Source of the DNA: Microbacterium ginsengiterrae
GTDB lineage: Bacteria; Actinomycetota; Actinomycetes; Actinomycetales; Microbacteriaceae
Direction of reading: 5' to 3'
DNA length: 64,000 nt
NCBI RefSeq assembly: GCF_014205075.1
Contig: NZ_JACHMU010000001.1
Location: 744,001-808,000, forward strand
The notes beneath the pieces were generated by a model, which was not told where the DNA came from, did not search any database, and saw nothing but the letters and a program-made list of their open reading frames with translations. The translations under genes were made by a program, and so were the position numbers. Below are positions 4,253 through 56,736 of the stretch, in pieces. The stretch's first letter is position 1, and every line of letters begins with the position of its first letter.

Positions 4253-5083
4253 ATGAGACGTGCATCACTTCCGACGGCGGCGTTCGCCTGCGCCATGCTG
4301 GTCGCCCTCGCGAGCGGATGCTCCGTGACGCCCGAGCCGCCGGGCGACGGACCGACGGACTCCGTGCGGATGCCACCGGTGGGCGCCGCACCGGATTATC
4401 AGCTCGGAGGGGCGTACGGGCCTGCCGAGCAGGTGGGGATCGTCGGTCGGGATCGCACCGCGGAACCCGCCTCCGACGCCTACTCGATCTGTTACGTCAA
4501 CGCGTTCCAGACGCAGCCGAGCGAACTCGACCAGTGGCCGGAGGATCTGCTGCTCCGCATCGACGGGGACGTCGTGTTCGATCCGGAGTGGCCGGACGAG
4601 GCCCTGCTGGACACCTCGACGGATGCGCGGCGCGAGCGGATCGCTCGGATCGTCAGGCCGTGGATCGTCGGGTGCGCCGAGGCGGGTTTCGACGCCGTGG
4701 AGTTCGACAACCTCGACTCGTACACGCGTTCGGAGGGCCTGCTCGCCGGCGACGACAACCTGGCACTGGCGGCGGCGCTGGTCGACGCCGCCCACCGTGT
4801 CGGGCTCGCGGCAGGGCAGAAGAACGCCGCAGAGGACGCGTCGGTGCTGCGGGAACGAGCAGGGTTCGACTTCGCGCTCGTCGAGGAGTGCGCCGCATAC
4901 GAGGAATGCGATGCCTTCACCGCGGTGTACGGCGAGCACGTCATCGACATCGAGTACACCGATTGGATGCCGCGATCATTCGCCGAGATGTGCGCCGCCC
5001 CCTCCGCCCCGGCATCCATGGTCCTGCGCGATCGCGATCTTCTCCCCGCCGGCGAACCAGGGCACGTCTTCGCGGTCTGCTGA
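4253..5083 (+). CDS. Lipoprotein, endo-alpha-1,4-polygalactosaminidase-like (GH114/TM1410 family)
   Basis: 276 aa with a lipoprotein signal peptide: MRRASL start, hydrophobic core, lipobox LASGC. It is therefore predicted to be anchored outside the membrane. The mature part has the barrel motifs typical of the TM1410/GH114 family: CYVNAFQTQ, then FDAVEFDNLDSYTRS where Asp/Glu residues cluster, then GQKNA. The family cleaves galactosamine-containing polysaccharides, but the substrate here is unknown. ATG 4253 is chosen because it alone gives a proper signal peptide; a longer frame overlaps lysR and is rejected. It stands alone, 31 nt after lysR. Confidence 0.82.
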   Translation: MRRASLPTAAFACAMLVALASGCSVTPEPPGDGPTDSVRMPPVGAAPDYQLGGAYGPAEQVGIVGRDRTAEPASDAYSICYVNAFQTQPSELDQWPEDLLLRIDGDVVFDPEWPDEALLDTSTDARRERIARIVRPWIVGCAEAGFDAVEFDNLDSYTRSEGLLAGDDNLALAAALVDAAHRVGLAAGQKNAAEDASVLRERAGFDFALVEECAAYEECDAFTAVYGEHVIDIEYTDWMPRSFAEMCAAPSAPASMVLRDRDLLPAGEPGHVFAVC

Positions 5084-16123: not shown

Positions 16124-17794
16124 TCAACTCGTTCGCCCGGCCACCATCCTCACGACGCGGTCGATCGTCCCGGGCGGCGGGACGACATGGGAGATGAGCA
16201 CGACCGACTGCTCGCCGGCCGCTCCGAGCAGGTCGCGCAGCAGCGCGTCGGACGCCTCCGGGTCGACCCCCGCCGTCGGCTCGTCGAGCACGAGGACAGG
16301 GAAGCCGCGCAGCAGTGCCCGCGCCAGCGCGATGCGCTGCGCCTGGCCACCGGACACGAGGGCGCCTCTGTCACCCACCCGCGCGCTCAGGCCGCCGCGC
16401 TCACGCAGCCACCCGCCGAGCCCCACTCGCTCCAGCACCTCGATGAGCTCCTCATCCGTCGCCGTGTCGCGGGCGAACAGGAGGTTCTGCCTGATGTCCT
16501 CGTCGAAGAGCTGCGGATGCTGCTCGCACAGCCCGATCGTCCTCCGCAGCGCGGGCCCGCCGATCGCGTCGGCGTCCACGCCGCCGACGGTGAGCTCCCC
16601 CTCGGCGCGGAGGAATCCGACCAGTACAGCGGCCAGTGCGCTCTTGCCTGCACCGCTCGGGCCCGAGACGAGCACCCGCTCCCCCGGAGCGACATCCAGC
16701 GACACCCCACGCAGCGCGGCGGCGCCACCCGGCCACGATGCCCGGACATCCCGCAGGTGCAGTGCGGTTCCCTCAGTGGCCTCGTCCGAACCGGCATCCG
16801 ATCGCAGCTGCGGCGGCATCGACGCCGGCAGCACGTCGACCACCCGCTGCGCGCTGGCACCCACGCTGCGCCACGATGCGGCGGCGATCGGGACCGCGCC
16901 GAAGACCTCGAAGACGACCATCGGCACGAGCACGACCACCGCGAGCCACGGCCCGTCGACCGTGCCGGTCGAGAGCCCGGGGGCCGCCGCCACCAGCGCC
17001 CACGCCGACGCGACTCCGGCGAGCACCGAGACCGCTCCGGCGGCGACAGCCGAGGCGAACGAGGCGCGGGTGACCGTGCGGCGGACCGCGGCATCCGCCC
17101 GTTCGATGCGCTCGCGCGCCTGCGGCTCGGCTCCGTAGGCGAGGAGGACGTCGAGACTGCCGAGGTAGTCGACGAGCGCGGCCGAGAGCTCCGCGCGCTC
17201 GCGCGAGACACGCTGCTCGGCACGCGACCCGAACAGCCACCCGAGTCCGACCGCGACGCCCGCGGCGACGACGAGGCAGATCGCGAGCGTGAGCGCCGCC
17301 GCCGGAGAGACGAACGCGACGAAGCCCACCGCCCCCACGGCGACGACGCCGGCGACGGCGAGCGGCTGCACGACACGAAGAGGAAGGTTCTGCAGGTTGT
17401 CCACATCATCGACGAGCGCGGAGAGCAGTTGCCCTCGATCCGTGCGCCCGAGGCCGGCCGGCGACAGCGGCACGAGCCTCCGCACCATCTCCGACCTCGT
17501 GGCGGCGAGCTGGCGCAGTGCCGCGTCGTGCCCACTCAGCCGTTCCAGGTAGCGGAACACCGCGCGGGAGACCGCGAAGAACCGCACACCGACGACGGCG
17601 ACAGACAGCGGGACGAGCGAGTCCACGATCGACGCGCTGACGATCAGCCAGCCGCTGACGGCAAGGAGCGACACCGCGGCACCCGCCGACAGCACACCCC
17701 AGACAAGTCCGGGAAGGAACCGGCGCACGGGCGGCTGCGCGAGTCGCAGCACGTCCGCCGCGGTCCAGGCCGATCCGGTCTCCGCGCGGCTCAT
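16124..17794 (-). CDS. cydC: CydC, ABC exporter subunit for cytochrome bd assembly
   Basis: 556 aa. About six membrane helices, then a nucleotide-binding domain with Walker A GPSGAGKS, signature VSGGQAQRIALARAL, Walker B VLVLDEPTAGVD and switch ISHV. CydDC is a heterodimeric inner-membrane exporter of cysteine/glutathione-type thiols or heme-related substrate needed for cytochrome bd maturation. The start overlaps the cydD stop (ATGA), showing coupling; the start was chosen for that overlap and because upstream codons are antisense-like. It is the last gene of cydABDC. Confidence 0.93.
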   Translation of the reverse strand: MSRAETGSAWTAADVLRLAQPPVRRFLPGLVWGVLSAGAAVSLLAVSGWLIVSASIVDSLVPLSVAVVGVRFFAVSRAVFRYLERLSGHDAALRQLAATRSEMVRRLVPLSPAGLGRTDRGQLLSALVDDVDNLQNLPLRVVQPLAVAGVVAVGAVGFVAFVSPAAALTLAICLVVAAGVAVGLGWLFGSRAEQRVSRERAELSAALVDYLGSLDVLLAYGAEPQARERIERADAAVRRTVTRASFASAVAAGAVSVLAGVASAWALVAAAPGLSTGTVDGPWLAVVVLVPMVVFEVFGAVPIAAASWRSVGASAQRVVDVLPASMPPQLRSDAGSDEATEGTALHLRDVRASWPGGAAALRGVSLDVAPGERVLVSGPSGAGKSALAAVLVGFLRAEGELTVGGVDADAIGGPALRRTIGLCEQHPQLFDEDIRQNLLFARDTATDEELIEVLERVGLGGWLRERGGLSARVGDRGALVSGGQAQRIALARALLRGFPVLVLDEPTAGVDPEASDALLRDLLGAAGEQSVVLISHVVPPPGTIDRVVRMVAGRTS

Positions 17795-19431
17795 GCCGGC
17801 ACCCCCAGCCCGACGATCCGGTCCGCGATCTCCCGCGCCGACCGACGGTGCGACACGAGCAGCACGGTGGCGCCGGCATCCGCCCTCGCCCGCAGGGTCG
17901 CCCACAGGCGGGCCTCTGTCTCGGCATCCAGCGCGCTCGACGGCTCATCGAGAACGAGCACCCGCCGGGGGTCTGCGGCGTGCCGGTACAGCGCGCGGGC
18001 GACTCCCACCCGCTGCGCCTGGCCGCCGGACAGCCCGCTGCCCTGGACTCCGAGCTCCTGCGCCGGGTCCACGTCGTCCGCGCAGGCCGCGGCGAGCGCC
18101 TCGCGGACGCGCGCCTCGTCCGGCTGCGCCCCGAGCGCCACGTTCTGCGCGATCGTGCCGCGGATGAGTCCCGGCGCCTGCCCGGCCCAGGCGAGCCAGT
18201 CGGACGCAGCGAGCGTCGCGACCTCGACGCCGGACCAGGTCGCCGAGCCGTCGTACTCGGCCGCGCCCGTGAGCGCAGCGATGATGCTCGACTTCCCCGA
18301 CCCGCTCGGCCCCTCGATGAGGGTGATCGACCCGGGCGACGCCGTGAACGTGACGGCCGGGAGGTCGCGGATGCGGAGGTCCGTGACGCACAACTCCGGA
18401 GATTCTGCGGATTCCGGCCCCTCTGCCGCCGAGAATCCGGGGTTCTGCGAGGAACCTCCGGAGTTGTGCCCGGCGGCGGGGCGGGATGCCGCGGCGTCGA
18501 GCACCTGGAAGACGTCCTCAGTGGCGGCGACGCCCTCCGCGGCGGCATGGAACTGCACCCCCACCTGGCGCACGGGGAGGAACGCCTCGGGGGCGAGGAG
18601 CAGGACGAACAGGCCGATCTCCAGCGAGAGATCACCGGCGAGCAGCCGGAATCCGACGGCCACGGCGATCAGCGCGACGGCGAGGGACGACAGCAGCTCC
18701 ATCGCGAAGCCGGAGAGGAACGAGAACCGCAGCACGGTCATCGTCTCTCGGCGGTACTGATCGGCGGTGGTCTCGATCTGACGCGCCGCGCGCGCATCGC
18801 GTCCGAACAGCCGAAGAGTCGCGAGCCCCTGCACGGTGTCGGCGAAACGCGCGGCCAGCCGTTGCAGCGTCTGCCACTGTCGGCGCTGCACGGTCCGCGT
18901 GGCGAGGCCGATGAGGATCATGAAGATCGGGATCAGTGGCAGGGTGATGACCGCGGTCAGCCCGCTCGGCCAGTCCTGCCACCACATCACCGCGACGATG
19001 ACGGGGGTCGCGACGACGGTGAGCACCAGCTGCGGAAGATACCGGGCGAAGTAGGCGTCGAGCGCCTCGAGACCGCGCCCTGCGGTGACGGCGAGTACAG
19101 ACCTGTTGCGCGCCGCCAGCCAGCCCGGGCCGAGCGCACCGATCGCCCTGATGAGCGCCGCTCGCAGTTGTGCCCCCGTCCGCGCTGCCGCGCTCATCGC
19201 CGCCGCGTCCGATGCGGCGATGAGGATGCCGCGCACGAGAGCGAGCACGAGCACCCACAGGACGGATGCCGCCACCGGGCGACCGGCGATGGCACCGGTG
19301 AGCGCGTCGGTGAGGAACCAGGCGAACGCGATGACGACCCCGGTCTGGAGCACGCCGATCGCCGCGGCGAGGACGAAGAATCCCCGTGCGGCGCCGGCGT
19401 ACTTCAGCAGCCTCGGATCGACGGGTTTCAC
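17791..19431 (-). CDS. cydD: CydD, ABC exporter subunit for cytochrome bd assembly, with an 80-bp repeat insertion
   Basis: 546 aa. Six-helix membrane domain (about 1-300), then a nucleotide-binding domain with Walker A GPSGSGKS, signature LSGGQAQRVGVARAL and Walker B VLVLDEPSSALD. GTG 19431 overlaps the cydB stop (GTGA). Residues about 322-348 (starting HNSGGSS, ending SPELC) are encoded by an 80-bp palindromic element inserted in frame between the two domains. The linker is Ser/Gly/Pro/Glu-rich and probably flexible, so both domains are likely intact. It acts with CydC. Confidence 0.93.
   Translation of the reverse strand: MKPVDPRLLKYAGAARGFFVLAAAIGVLQTGVVIAFAWFLTDALTGAIAGRPVAASVLWVLVLALVRGILIAASDAAAMSAAARTGAQLRAALIRAIGALGPGWLAARNRSVLAVTAGRGLEALDAYFARYLPQLVLTVVATPVIVAVMWWQDWPSGLTAVITLPLIPIFMILIGLATRTVQRRQWQTLQRLAARFADTVQGLATLRLFGRDARAARQIETTADQYRRETMTVLRFSFLSGFAMELLSSLAVALIAVAVGFRLLAGDLSLEIGLFVLLLAPEAFLPVRQVGVQFHAAAEGVAATEDVFQVLDAAASRPAAGHNSGGSSQNPGFSAAEGPESAESPELCVTDLRIRDLPAVTFTASPGSITLIEGPSGSGKSSIIAALTGAAEYDGSATWSGVEVATLAASDWLAWAGQAPGLIRGTIAQNVALGAQPDEARVREALAAACADDVDPAQELGVQGSGLSGGQAQRVGVARALYRHAADPRRVLVLDEPSSALDAETEARLWATLRARADAGATVLLVSHRRSAREIADRIVGLGVPA
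18389..18468. repeat. 80-bp palindromic element, copy 1 (inside cydD)
   Basis: It begins CACAACTCCGGAG and ends CTCCGGAGTTGTG, a perfect 13-bp terminal inverted repeat, and is exactly 80 bp long. It is read in frame by cydD as about 27 residues. About 60% identity by eye to the copy at 56463-56542. Confidence 0.8.
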
Positions 19432-50219: not shown

Positions 50220-50253
50220 CGGCTGTTCCTCTCCGTCGGTCACAACTCCGGTG

Positions 50254-50267
50254 TGTTGACGTTATCA
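50254..50267. promoter_or_regulatory. GalR operator O1
   Basis: TGTTGACGTTATCA, an imperfect dyad. It contains the TTGACG -35 of galT (50256-50261). Confidence 0.65.
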
Positions 50268-50284
50268 TCGCGCCGCAGGTACCG

Positions 50285-50298
50285 TGTTGACGTGAACA
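50285..50298. promoter_or_regulatory. GalR operator O2 over the galT start
   Basis: TGTTGACGTGAACA, 12 of 14 symmetric, of the TGTTNACGTNAACA LacI type. It is 31 bp (three turns) from O1 and covers the leaderless GTG of galT. Confidence 0.7.
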
Positions 50299-51476
50299 CG
50301 CACCATTCTCCGGAGTTGCGCACGACGGAACTCGGTGGCGGCGTCGTCAAGCGCGCCACGACTCTCGCCGACGGGCGCGACCTCATCTACTACGACGACC
50401 CGGGCACCACCCTCGGCCCCGAGCGCTCCGTCGACGCCCGCACCCTCGGGCCGCGCCCCGACACCGCGAGCATGCGCCTCGATGTGCTCACCGGTGACTG
50501 GATCACGGTCGCCGCGAACCGACAGAACCGCGTCATGATGCCCGGCGCGGATGCCGATCCACTCGCCCCGCAGACGCCGGGCAACCCCTCCGAGGTCCCG
50601 TCGAACTACGACGTCGCCGTGTTCGAGAACCGCTCCCCCGCATTCGGCCCCGCACTCACCGAGGCCACCGGCGGAGCACCGGCCGCATCAAACCGCCCGC
50701 GTGGCCTGGACGACCTCGACGCACTCGGGCTCGGACGCACCCGCACGGCGGTCGGCCGCTGCGAGGTCGTCTGCTTCAGCCCCGACCACTCCGGCTCCTT
50801 CGGCACCCAGTCCGTCACCCGCGCCCGCACCGTGATCGAGGCCCTGGCCGACCGCACCGCCGCGCTGTCGCAGCTCCCCGGCATCCAGCAGGTGTTCCCG
50901 TTCGAGAACCGCGGTGAGGCGATCGGCGTCACGCTCCCCCACCCGCACGGTCAGATCTACGCCTACCCGTACGTCACTCCGCGCACGGCCCGCACGCTGG
51001 AGAGCATCGACCGCACCGCCCCTGACCTCTTCCAGCGCATCCTCGACCACGAGCAGACGTCCGAGCGCGTCGTGCTGCAAGGAGAGCACTGGACCGCGTT
51101 CGTCCCCTTCGCCGCACGCTGGCCCCTCGAGGTGCACCTCATGCCGCATCGGCACGTGCCCGACCTCGCCGAGACGACCGCGGCCGAGCGCGATGAGCTC
51201 GCCCCGCTGTACCTCACGCTGCTCCGAGGCGTGGATGCGATGTACGACACCCCGACGCCGTACATCGCCGCCTGGCATCAGGCACCGGTGAACATCGGGC
51301 GCGACACCGCGCGCCTGCACCTGCAGCTGACGAGCCCGCGCCGAGGAGCGGACAAGCTCAAGTTCCTGGCCGGCTCCGAGGCCGCCATGTGGGCGTGGGC
51401 GGCCGAGGTCACCCCCGAGCAGGGGGCCGAGCGGCTCCGAGAGGCCATCGCACGCACCGAGGCGGTGACACAGTGA
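50292..51476 (+). CDS. galT: Galactose-1-phosphate uridylyltransferase
   Basis: 394 aa. His217-Pro-His219-Gly-Gln in LPHPHGQIYAYP is the active-site HPHGQ, whose second His is uridylylated. Other family blocks are FENRSPAFGP and LEVHLMPHRHVPDL. GTG 50292 has TACCGT (50280-50285) 6 nt upstream, with TTGACG 18 bp before that, so it is leaderless and its start lies inside operator O2. First gene of galT-galK (GTGA overlap). Confidence 0.95.
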   Translation: MNTHHSPELRTTELGGGVVKRATTLADGRDLIYYDDPGTTLGPERSVDARTLGPRPDTASMRLDVLTGDWITVAANRQNRVMMPGADADPLAPQTPGNPSEVPSNYDVAVFENRSPAFGPALTEATGGAPAASNRPRGLDDLDALGLGRTRTAVGRCEVVCFSPDHSGSFGTQSVTRARTVIEALADRTAALSQLPGIQQVFPFENRGEAIGVTLPHPHGQIYAYPYVTPRTARTLESIDRTAPDLFQRILDHEQTSERVVLQGEHWTAFVPFAARWPLEVHLMPHRHVPDLAETTAAERDELAPLYLTLLRGVDAMYDTPTPYIAAWHQAPVNIGRDTARLHLQLTSPRRGADKLKFLAGSEAAMWAWAAEVTPEQGAERLREAIARTEAVTQ

Positions 51477-55761: not shown

Positions 55762-56736
55762 TCAGACGACGCTCACCTGTGCGTGCGGCATCCGCTGCTG
55801 CATCACTCTGATCGCCTCGGGGTTGTCGTCGACGAGGACGGCGTCCCGTCCGAGCGCGGATGCGACGGCCCCTGTGGTCCCTGAGCCGGCGAAGAGATCG
55901 AGCACCTTGTCTCCCGGACGGCTGGAGGCCTGCACGATGCGGCGCAGGATCCCCTCCGGCTTCTGGGTCGGGTATCCGGTCTTCTCTCGGCCGGTCGTTG
56001 GGACGATCGTGTGCCACCAGACGTCGGTCGGGAGCTTGCCGCGCGCGGCCTTCTCCGGCGTCACGAGCCCCGGGGCCATGTACGGCTCCCGATCGATGTC
56101 GTCGGCGTTGAAGACGTGCCCGCCCGGCGTCTTCACGTACACGAGGATCGTGTCGTGCTTGGTGGGCCAGCGCCGCCGGGACTTCGCGCCGTAGTCGTAC
56201 GCCCAGATGAGTTCGTTGAGGAAGGCGTCGCGACCGAACAGGGCGTCGAGCATGACCTTGGCGTAGTGCGCCTCGCGGTAGTCGAGGTGGAGGTACAGCG
56301 TGCCGTCGTCCGCGAGCAGCCGCCACGCCTCCTCCAGCCGGGGCATGAGGAAGGCTCCGTAGTCGTCGAACCGGTCGTCGTAGGTGCGCAGCATCCCCCG
56401 TACCCGCTCGTACTCGTGTCCGTGGAATCCGTAGCGGACCTCGCGTGGGCCGTCCGCCGGAGCATGACTCCGGAGATCTTCGCCGGATCCGCGTGTTTCC
56501 GGCGCCGAATCGGCGGATTCGTCCGGATTCTCCGGAGTTGTGCGCATGCGGCGGGCGGTGACCACCTGACGCTCCTGCGCGCGGCCGGTGTTGAACGGCG
56601 GATCGAGGTACACGAGCGTGAAGGACGACGACGGCAGCGTCCGCGCGACCGCGAGGTTGTCGCCCTGAAGGATCGACACCGTCCCGGCCGCCGACTCGTG
56701 CGCCTCCACGGCGTCAGCGACGGGCACGGACGTCAC
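55762..56736 (-). CDS. Orphan DNA methyltransferase (beta-class N4-cytosine/N6-adenine type), with repeat insertion
   Basis: 324 aa. Motif IV DPPF (45-48) near the N-terminus and AdoMet motif I DLFAGSGTTG near the C-terminus, the circular order of beta-class methyltransferases. LLADDGTLYLHLDYREAHYAKVMLDALFG and TGYPTQKPEGILRRIV complete the family. No endonuclease gene is beside it, so it may be a solitary epigenetic or repair-related enzyme. Residues about 65-92 come from an 80-bp palindromic element. GTG 56736 overlaps the lipoate ligase stop (GTGA). Confidence 0.9.
   Translation of the reverse strand: MTSVPVADAVEAHESAAGTVSILQGDNLAVARTLPSSSFTLVYLDPPFNTGRAQERQVVTARRMRTTPENPDESADSAPETRGSGEDLRSHAPADGPREVRYGFHGHEYERVRGMLRTYDDRFDDYGAFLMPRLEEAWRLLADDGTLYLHLDYREAHYAKVMLDALFGRDAFLNELIWAYDYGAKSRRRWPTKHDTILVYVKTPGGHVFNADDIDREPYMAPGLVTPEKAARGKLPTDVWWHTIVPTTGREKTGYPTQKPEGILRRIVQASSRPGDKVLDLFAGSGTTGAVASALGRDAVLVDDNPEAIRVMQQRMPHAQVSVV
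56463..56542. repeat. 80-bp palindromic element, copy 2 (inside the DNA methyltransferase)
   Basis: Begins CATGACTCCGGAG and ends CTCCGGAGTTGTG (11 of 13 inverted). Exactly 80 bp and in frame with the gene. The reading frame relative to the element differs by one base from that used in cydD. Confidence 0.75.

What the first reader, a model, noticed from the sequence alone, without database searches (positions are those of the whole stretch)
18389..18468. In-frame 80-bp palindromic element inside cydD: member of a possible protein-inserting repeat family
Two further sites in this window (56463-56542 and 50241-50320) have the same CACAACTCCGGAG-type ends in inverted orientation and the same length of exactly 80 bp. 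Here the termini are a perfect 13-bp inverted repeat, and the element adds about 27 Ser/Gly/Pro/Glu-rich residues between the membrane and ATPase domains without breaking the frame. An 80-bp unit shifts the frame unless its boundary compensates, so in-frame retention implies selection or a duplicated base. Rickettsial palindromic elements are the only protein-inserting analogue I know; I know of no description in Microbacteriaceae.
Basis: partly seen in the sequence, partly recalled or inferred. Interest (0 to 1): 0.82.

Follow-up and report, generated by a model that had tools for sequence, protein, structure and literature searches.

The report
Wrapped-DNA elements in Microbacterium chromosomes
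The 80-base segment inside a transporter gene belongs to a family of short DNA elements scattered through chromosomes of the bacterial genus Microbacterium, whose fixed ends, fixed length and ten-base rhythm look like a signal for wrapping DNA around a protein rather than a protein insert or an ordinary jumping gene.

Summary
The window's genome has at least 28 copies. Variants with other inner end sequences occur in the genus, and the same ends occur in Agromyces and Galbitalea. Each copy has two inverted ends (CACAACTC plus a subtype such as CGGAG), mostly 78-81 bp apart, more rarely about 69 or 92 bp, with almost nothing between these classes. Interior letters are weakly conserved, but A/T content peaks every ~10 bp across the element and the rhythm stops at its ends. 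The interior halves do not covary as a hairpin. Copies at one site in several genomes keep exact length and 90-95% identical ends while interiors are near random. The cydD copy is one of these, in a predicted disordered linker. Copies lie mostly at gene 3' ends, about a fifth inside genes, with an excess towards oriC. No RAYT transposase was found in 13 element-rich genomes. Best reading: duplex DNA sites where a protein grips both ends and wraps the DNA between. The protein is unknown; chromosome organisation is my inference.

The parts
18389..18468 (.). type-1 element (ends CACAACTCCGGAG / CTCCGGAGTTGTG), in frame inside cydD; codes HNSG...PELC
18389..18401 (+). left terminal inverted repeat, 13 bp, predicted protein-contact end
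   Evidence: end conservation
18456..18468 (-). right terminal inverted repeat, 13 bp, predicted protein-contact end
   Evidence: end conservation
18402..18455 (.). 54-bp interior; letters weakly conserved, A/T peaks about every 10 bp (predicted bent or wrapped segment)
   Evidence: phase correlation 0.52 for this copy
17791..19431 (-). cydD (ABC_membrane + ABC_tran); the insert lies in a linker predicted disordered (pLDDT < 50 at residues 319-342)
50241..50320 (.). 80-bp element just before galT; one mismatch in each end; interior of promoter/operator type by eye
   Evidence: similar interiors by eye in three other genomes
50331..51476 (+). galT (GalP_UDP_transf); exact start codon not determined
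56463..56542 (.). 80-bp element in frame inside a DNA methyltransferase gene; same site and length in four further genomes
55762..56736 (-). DNA methyltransferase gene (N6_N4_Mtase) carrying the element

Best explanation
Each element is a double-stranded DNA site for a nucleoprotein complex. A protein (not identified) binds the two inverted end sequences. The DNA between them is bent around it, with A/T-rich minor-groove faces turned inward about every 10 bp. The two ends must therefore lie on one face of the helix, which fixes the length at 78-81 bp, or about one turn less (~69) or more (~92). The interior letters are largely free and can carry other functions (codons, perhaps a terminator or a promoter). 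About 30 such sites in the window's genome, mostly at gene ends on the origin side of the chromosome, would fold or mark that part of the chromosome. SHOWN: ends, length classes, A/T phasing confined to the element, no hairpin covariation, persistence at shared sites, excess near oriC. INFERRED: wrapping, the protein, and the role in chromosome organisation. The same 80-bp unit has also been copied to a second site at least once, so it had or has a way to spread.
For: Ends: the right 13 bp is near-invariant in 18 own copies (the left end was the search key there, so its invariance is by selection). Length: 83 listed places in 18 other genomes are 72 (1), 79-81 (72), 90 (1) and 92 (9) bp, although 71-101 was allowed. 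Subtypes in G042 and G068 are 68-71 bp, with 91-92 bp forms in several genomes (listed places). In 208 distinct elements: 57 (1), 69-70 (7), 78-81 (189), 89-93 (11); letter-reversed control 3 hits. A/T phasing: 49 elements, period-10 power of the mean profile 0.83 against 0.005 shuffled. In 62 other elements from named species, none shared with the first set, per-element power 0.59 against 0.19 +- 0.024. Phase correlation is positive in 97% of 188 elements against 49% of 3509 control windows, p = 6e-90; for elements not used to set the template, 143 of 148. It stops at the element ends (power 0.41 inside, 0.02 in flanks). No hairpin: pairing within copies 0.341, between copies 0.338 +- 0.011. 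Shared sites: ABC-F five genomes all 79 bp; methyltransferase 1 five, methyltransferase 2 four, HrpA four and CydD three genomes all 80 bp. Ends 0.90-0.95 identical, interior 0.40-0.56, random 0.33. DNA-level constraint: in CydD the end keeps TTG or TTA for Leu, which are 3.3% and 0.12% of Leu codons in the window's genes. oriC side: own 25 sites, mean distance 0.24 of the half-chromosome, KS p = 1.2e-6; seven other genomes, 38 sites, p = 5e-5. Context: 56 convergent, 10 divergent, 82 tandem.
Against: No binding protein was found and no bending was measured. Shared-site copies were found by their ends, so decayed ones are under-counted: a decayed copy is seen in HrpA of G084 and in CydD of G014 and G001, and G004 and G002 have none. 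Steps between length classes (11-12 bp) are slightly longer than the ~10-bp A/T period. One genome with many copies (G106) shows no significant origin bias on its own (p = 0.17). The exact patterns are missing from many species: 195 of 247 lack type 1, and 35 of 60 lack the exact outer ends. A universal housekeeping role would not predict that, unless their ends have drifted. Two own copies share 85% of the interior with unrelated flanks, so the unit can be copied. Phasing is weak in two of four HrpA copies (-0.03, 0.12) and one of three CydD copies (0.06).
Confidence: 0.62

Rival explanations
1. A miniature mobile element moved by a transposase acting in trans. Very short elements can only bring their ends together if the DNA is bent and the ends are in helical phase, so transposition itself selects ends, length classes and phased A/T.
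For: Two copies 12 kb apart share 85% of the interior with unrelated flanks. Tandem copies occur. Copy number runs from 0 to more than 20 per genome. Several end subtypes can coexist in a genome. The HrpA copy is absent from 9 of the 11 relatives whose linker could be read, and decayed copies exist.
Against: Copies at one site in 3-5 genomes keep ends and exact length although their interiors are near random; transposition alone does not protect a resident copy. In the own genome only 2 of 29 exact CACAACTCCGG matches lack a partner end, and no full-length element with these ends was seen. Y1 transposase: 0 of 13 genomes; other transposase families were not tested. Concentration near oriC is not expected of random insertion.
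Confidence: 0.22
2. A REPIN: two inverted REP sequences forming a single-strand hairpin, spread by a RAYT transposase.
For: Same layout: conserved inverted ends, a less conserved spacer, and length as the critical feature (passages of PMC3116915).
Against: No RAYT (0 of 13 genomes, while the control rings in E. coli). No compensatory pairing in the interior, whereas REPINs are reported to show it. About a fifth lie inside genes. Length classes and A/T phasing point to duplex DNA.
Confidence: 0.04
3. Strong DNA gyrase sites that absorb supercoils at gene 3' ends, as BIME-2 does in E. coli; gyrase wraps DNA with periodic A/T.
For: The gyrase motif has arms with 10.75-bp GC periodicity compared to nucleosomes (passages of PMC6379681). 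The elements prefer convergent and 3' sites.
Against: The gyrase motif is 130 bp with a 36-bp centre between its periodic arms. Here phasing runs through the centre and stops at +-40 bp. Sequence-specific inverted ends, several end subtypes and apparent restriction to one family are not gyrase traits that I know of.
Confidence: 0.07
4. Protein-level feature: a selected linker peptide in CydD and other proteins.
For: In-frame copies at conserved sites in HrpA, ABC-F, two methyltransferases and CydD.
Against: Three unrelated peptides depending on frame; most copies are intergenic; ends preserve rare codons; the CydD linker is predicted disordered.
Confidence: 0.03

Closest known systems
REPINs (Bertels and Rainey 2011, PMC3116915; passages read)
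   Same: Inverted conserved ends, fixed spacing, less conserved spacer, many dispersed copies, occasional tandem clusters
   Different: No RAYT, no hairpin covariation, duplex phasing, helical-turn length classes, copies inside genes, persistence at shared sites, bias towards oriC
Rickettsia palindromic elements (passages of review PMC10969869)
   Same: Short elements inserted in frame in unrelated genes
   Different: RPEs are given as ~150 bp in ten families; here mostly 78-81 bp, mostly outside genes, interior not palindromic, A/T phased
E. coli BIME/RIB elements bound by gyrase or IHF (BIME-2 passages; RIB recalled, not read)
   Same: Intergenic repeats bound by DNA-bending or DNA-wrapping proteins
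   Different: No REP units; two specific ends with a largely free interior; a different phylum; no IHF-type site was searched for
DNA gyrase motif / strong gyrase sites (PMC6379681, passages)
   Same: A degenerate, phase-coded A/T signal read by DNA wrapping
   Different: No paired specific ends described in the passages read; 130 bp, 10.75-bp period, a separate 36-bp centre
Chromosome-domain sites such as matS/MatP, parS/ParB, Noc sites (recalled, no call)
   Same: Tens of sites with a biased position relative to origin or terminus
   Different: Those are single short sites of 13-16 bp; here paired ends with a fixed interval; no protein known

Membership tests
REPIN | two conserved inverted ends separated by a spacer of set length | tested here: met
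REPIN | spacer pairs with itself; compensatory changes across the hairpin | tested here: not met
   0.341 within against 0.338 between copies (116 elements); (18 elements)
REPIN | RAYT tyrosine transposase in the genome | tested here: not met
   PF01797 in 0 of 13 element-rich genomes; control positive in E. coli
REPIN | extragenic | tested here: not met
   47 of 208 called inside genes; 40 of 208 with an open coding-like frame through the element
MITE of a DDE-type insertion sequence | terminal inverted repeats | tested here: met
MITE of a DDE-type insertion sequence | target-site duplication | tested here: inconclusive
   no direct repeats seen by eye at element borders; no close empty site available
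MITE of a DDE-type insertion sequence | a full-length partner with the same ends and a transposase | tested here: inconclusive
   in the own genome 2 of 29 exact end matches are unpaired; other genomes not examined for this
Rickettsia palindromic element | in-frame insertion in many genes | tested here: met
Rickettsia palindromic element | sequence similarity to an RPE family | not tested
   RPE sequences were not fetched
DNA gyrase motif | 130-bp motif with periodic arms either side of a 36-bp centre | tested here: not met
   phasing runs through the centre and is nearly absent in flanks
protein-wrapped DNA site | A/T content phased with the helix over the whole site | tested here: met
protein-wrapped DNA site | spacing of end sites in whole helical turns | tested here: met
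   about 69, 80, 92 bp (one element of 57)
protein-wrapped DNA site | bound protein, measured bending | not testable with these tools
   needs footprinting, gel shift or ChIP

The most novel reading that the evidence does not exclude
Microbacteriaceae have an undescribed chromosome-organising system: a dedicated protein builds a single-turn, nucleosome-like DNA wrap at about 30 coded positions, mostly on the origin side of the chromosome, and the wrap's code (two specific ends, a helical-turn length and a 10-bp A/T rhythm) is strict enough to be kept in frame inside housekeeping genes.
Probability: 0.35. Interest if true: 0.95.

Novelty: categorically new. Interest (0 to 1): 0.85.

Why it matters
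It would be a bacterial DNA element that codes for wrapping rather than for sequence: conserved ends, quantised length and phased A/T with a largely free interior. It gives a ready test bed (tens of natural variants per genome, more than 200 collected here) for how a protein reads DNA shape. It may also reveal an origin-side chromosome organiser in this family, where I know of none (recalled). In addition, it explains odd linkers in CydD, HrpA, ABC-F and methyltransferase proteins as DNA-level constraint leaking into protein sequence.

Tried and rejected
RNA or DNA hairpin as the function: single copies fold well, as the paired ends alone would give, but covariation tests were negative. Nine of 116 interiors do hold a perfect stem of 9 bp or more, against 0.3% of shuffles; I take these as terminator-like reuse. 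Rfam: only a tRNA in the window at the gathering threshold. Phage origin: one viral contig matched, an unrelated tandem repeat. Recurrent neighbour gene as the cognate protein: the neighbour clusters that I could recognise were mostly metabolic or RNA-related genes at shared sites, with one LacI-type regulator cluster that I did not follow further. Exact insertion boundary and target duplication: relatives are too divergent in the linkers. Distribution outside the family: 0 of 202 other-family genomes of the order carry the exact CACAACTC pair (one control match), against 7 of 16 in the family. With the type-1 pattern one genome of another family (G026) had a single match of 88 bp, a length outside all classes and so probably chance; the control gave two matches in G032. 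Other end subtypes could be missed.

Counts and rows dropped. HrpA: of 20 relatives the linker could be read by my pattern in 11, 2 with an element (one decayed) and 9 without; two more carry one by the element finder; 7 were not read. CydD: 8 of 29 loci carry a recognisable pair and two more a decayed one. ABC-F group: locus L170 holds a second 80-bp element with unrelated flanks, which I left out of that group. Element counts from loci are biased by the patterns that fetched them; the less biased length evidence is, both from listed places only. The finder required matching ends. Origin-bias counts use only listed places (G106: 15 of 17; G086: 11 of 12; G008: 3 of 4), and genome sizes other than the own are rounded. 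Gene calls are my own codon-usage calls, not annotation. Neighbour genes other than the six proteins were named by eye. The PDB fold search failed and was not repeated.

Full report
WHAT IS THERE. A search of the window's genome (3.04 Mb, one contig) with exact paired ends gives 24 places and 0 for the backwards control. A model built from 18 copies finds 28 copies with best-strand E <= 4.3e-10, the next hit being at 0.15; only 150 of 6134 first-look candidates were scored.

FAMILY. In the same genus, 52 of 247 genomes have at least one type-1 pair, with 0 control matches in all rows. Searching only for the outer CACAACTC...GAGTTGTG pair in 60 genomes (5 with known type-1 copies, 55 without) gives 25 with matches, 21 of them among the 55, with other inner subtypes: CTCA, AGCA, CTGC/CGGC. 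In the order, 7 of 218 genomes match, all in the window's family.

LENGTH IN HELICAL TURNS. In one search lengths of 71-101 bp were allowed; the 83 listed places outside the own genome are 72 (1), 79-81 (72), 90 (1) and 92 (9). In one search (66-96 allowed) the listed lengths fall at 68-71, 79-81 and 91-92. Over 208 distinct elements in the loci held at that point: 57 (1), 69-70 (7), 78-81 (189), 89-93 (11). These steps are about one helical turn.

PHASED A/T. In 49 modal-length copies A/T peaks recur about every 10 bp across the interior, although single letters are weakly conserved. The result repeats in 62 elements from named species, none shared with the first set. Per element, 97% of 188 have positive phase correlation against 49% of 3509 control windows from the same loci (p = 6e-90); of the elements not used, 143 of 148. 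Flanks show almost none of it. The interior halves do not pair with each other beyond what unrelated copies do, so a hairpin is not what is conserved.

OLD AND KEPT IN PLACE. Site-sharing groups, one copy per genome: ABC-F gene (5 genomes, all 79 bp), DNA methyltransferase (5, all 80), a second methyltransferase (4, all 80), HrpA helicase (4, all 80), CydD type 1 (3, all 80). Ends are 90-95% identical, interiors 40-56% against 33% for random pairs. These copies were recognised by their ends, so the end identity is somewhat inflated; decayed copies exist (G084 HrpA; G014 and G001 CydD). In CydD the right junction is at the same base in the own genome, G162, G111 and G229. There the end holds TTG or TTA for leucine, 3.3% and 0.12% of leucine codons in the window's genes, so the constraint is on DNA. 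In the own genome, copies at 1403879 and 1416004 share 85% of the interior with unrelated flanks, so the unit can be copied.

WHERE. Of 208 elements, by my own gene calls: 47 inside genes, 56 between convergent genes, 82 between tandem genes, 10 between divergent genes, 13 at locus edges. By a stricter test 40 have an open coding-like frame through the element, using all three frames. In CydD the insert falls in a predicted disordered linker (pLDDT < 50 at residues 319-342). With dnaA as origin marker, own sites lie at a mean 0.24 of the half-chromosome from the origin (25 sites after merging neighbours under 5 kb; KS p = 1.2e-6). Seven other genomes pooled give 38 sites, mean 0.35, p = 5e-5; of these G086 and G008 are significant alone and G106 is not (p = 0.17). 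Some interiors look, by eye, like terminators (L164, L185, L239) or a promoter/operator before galT.

MECHANISM. Specific inverted ends, whole-turn spacing and phased A/T that stops at the ends are what a protein-wrapped duplex site would need. I infer a complex gripping both ends with the DNA bent between them. The protein is unknown. A role in origin-side chromosome organisation is my inference from position and conservation. The main rival is a miniature mobile element whose transposition needs the same geometry; it explains the copying event but not the persistence of ends in resident copies.

COMPARISON AND LITERATURE. REPINs are closest in layout (passages of PMC3116915), but no RAYT was found in any of 13 element-rich genomes and hairpin covariation is absent. 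Gyrase's motif is phase-coded but 130 bp with a separate centre (passages of PMC6379681). RPEs also insert in frame (passages of PMC10969869). Searches for a description in this genus or family (listings only, open-licence papers only) found none; the 2025 REP survey PMC12306157 has no match to 'Microbacter' in its main text.

Held-out phasing was added; the 28 copies were marked as a lower bound; the selection of shared-site copies by their ends, the dropped L170 element and the G026 match were added.

Noticed in passing
L164 about 4395-4474, L185, L239; L217 about 5990: Some elements enclose a G+C-rich inverted repeat resembling an intrinsic terminator (by eye), so the free interior may be reused as a terminator.
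   Followed up: partly
window 50241-50320; similar in G086 C1:2793292, G127 C12:86952, G106 C1:2208201: The element before galT encloses a promoter/operator-like sequence with GTGTTGACGT-type half-sites; by eye the same interior type recurs in three other genomes, whose gene context was not checked.
   Followed up: no
G000 C1:1990027, 1990211, 1990396 (L063): Three tandem copies about 184 bp apart beside a gene that looks by eye like an integrase-core transposase.
   Followed up: partly
L119, L122, L239, L256: Elements of two end subtypes (CTCA and CGGAG) lie close together, in L119 and L122 within the CydD linker (in L122 only a left half of the CGGAG type).
   Followed up: no
G042 and G068: Two genomes use mainly the 69-bp class with CTGC/CGGC ends, a natural one-turn-shorter variant.
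   Followed up: no
L149, L160, L190, L219, L246: One cluster of recurrent neighbour genes includes a LacI-type regulator (by eye), with members in Microbacterium and Agromyces loci.
   Followed up: no
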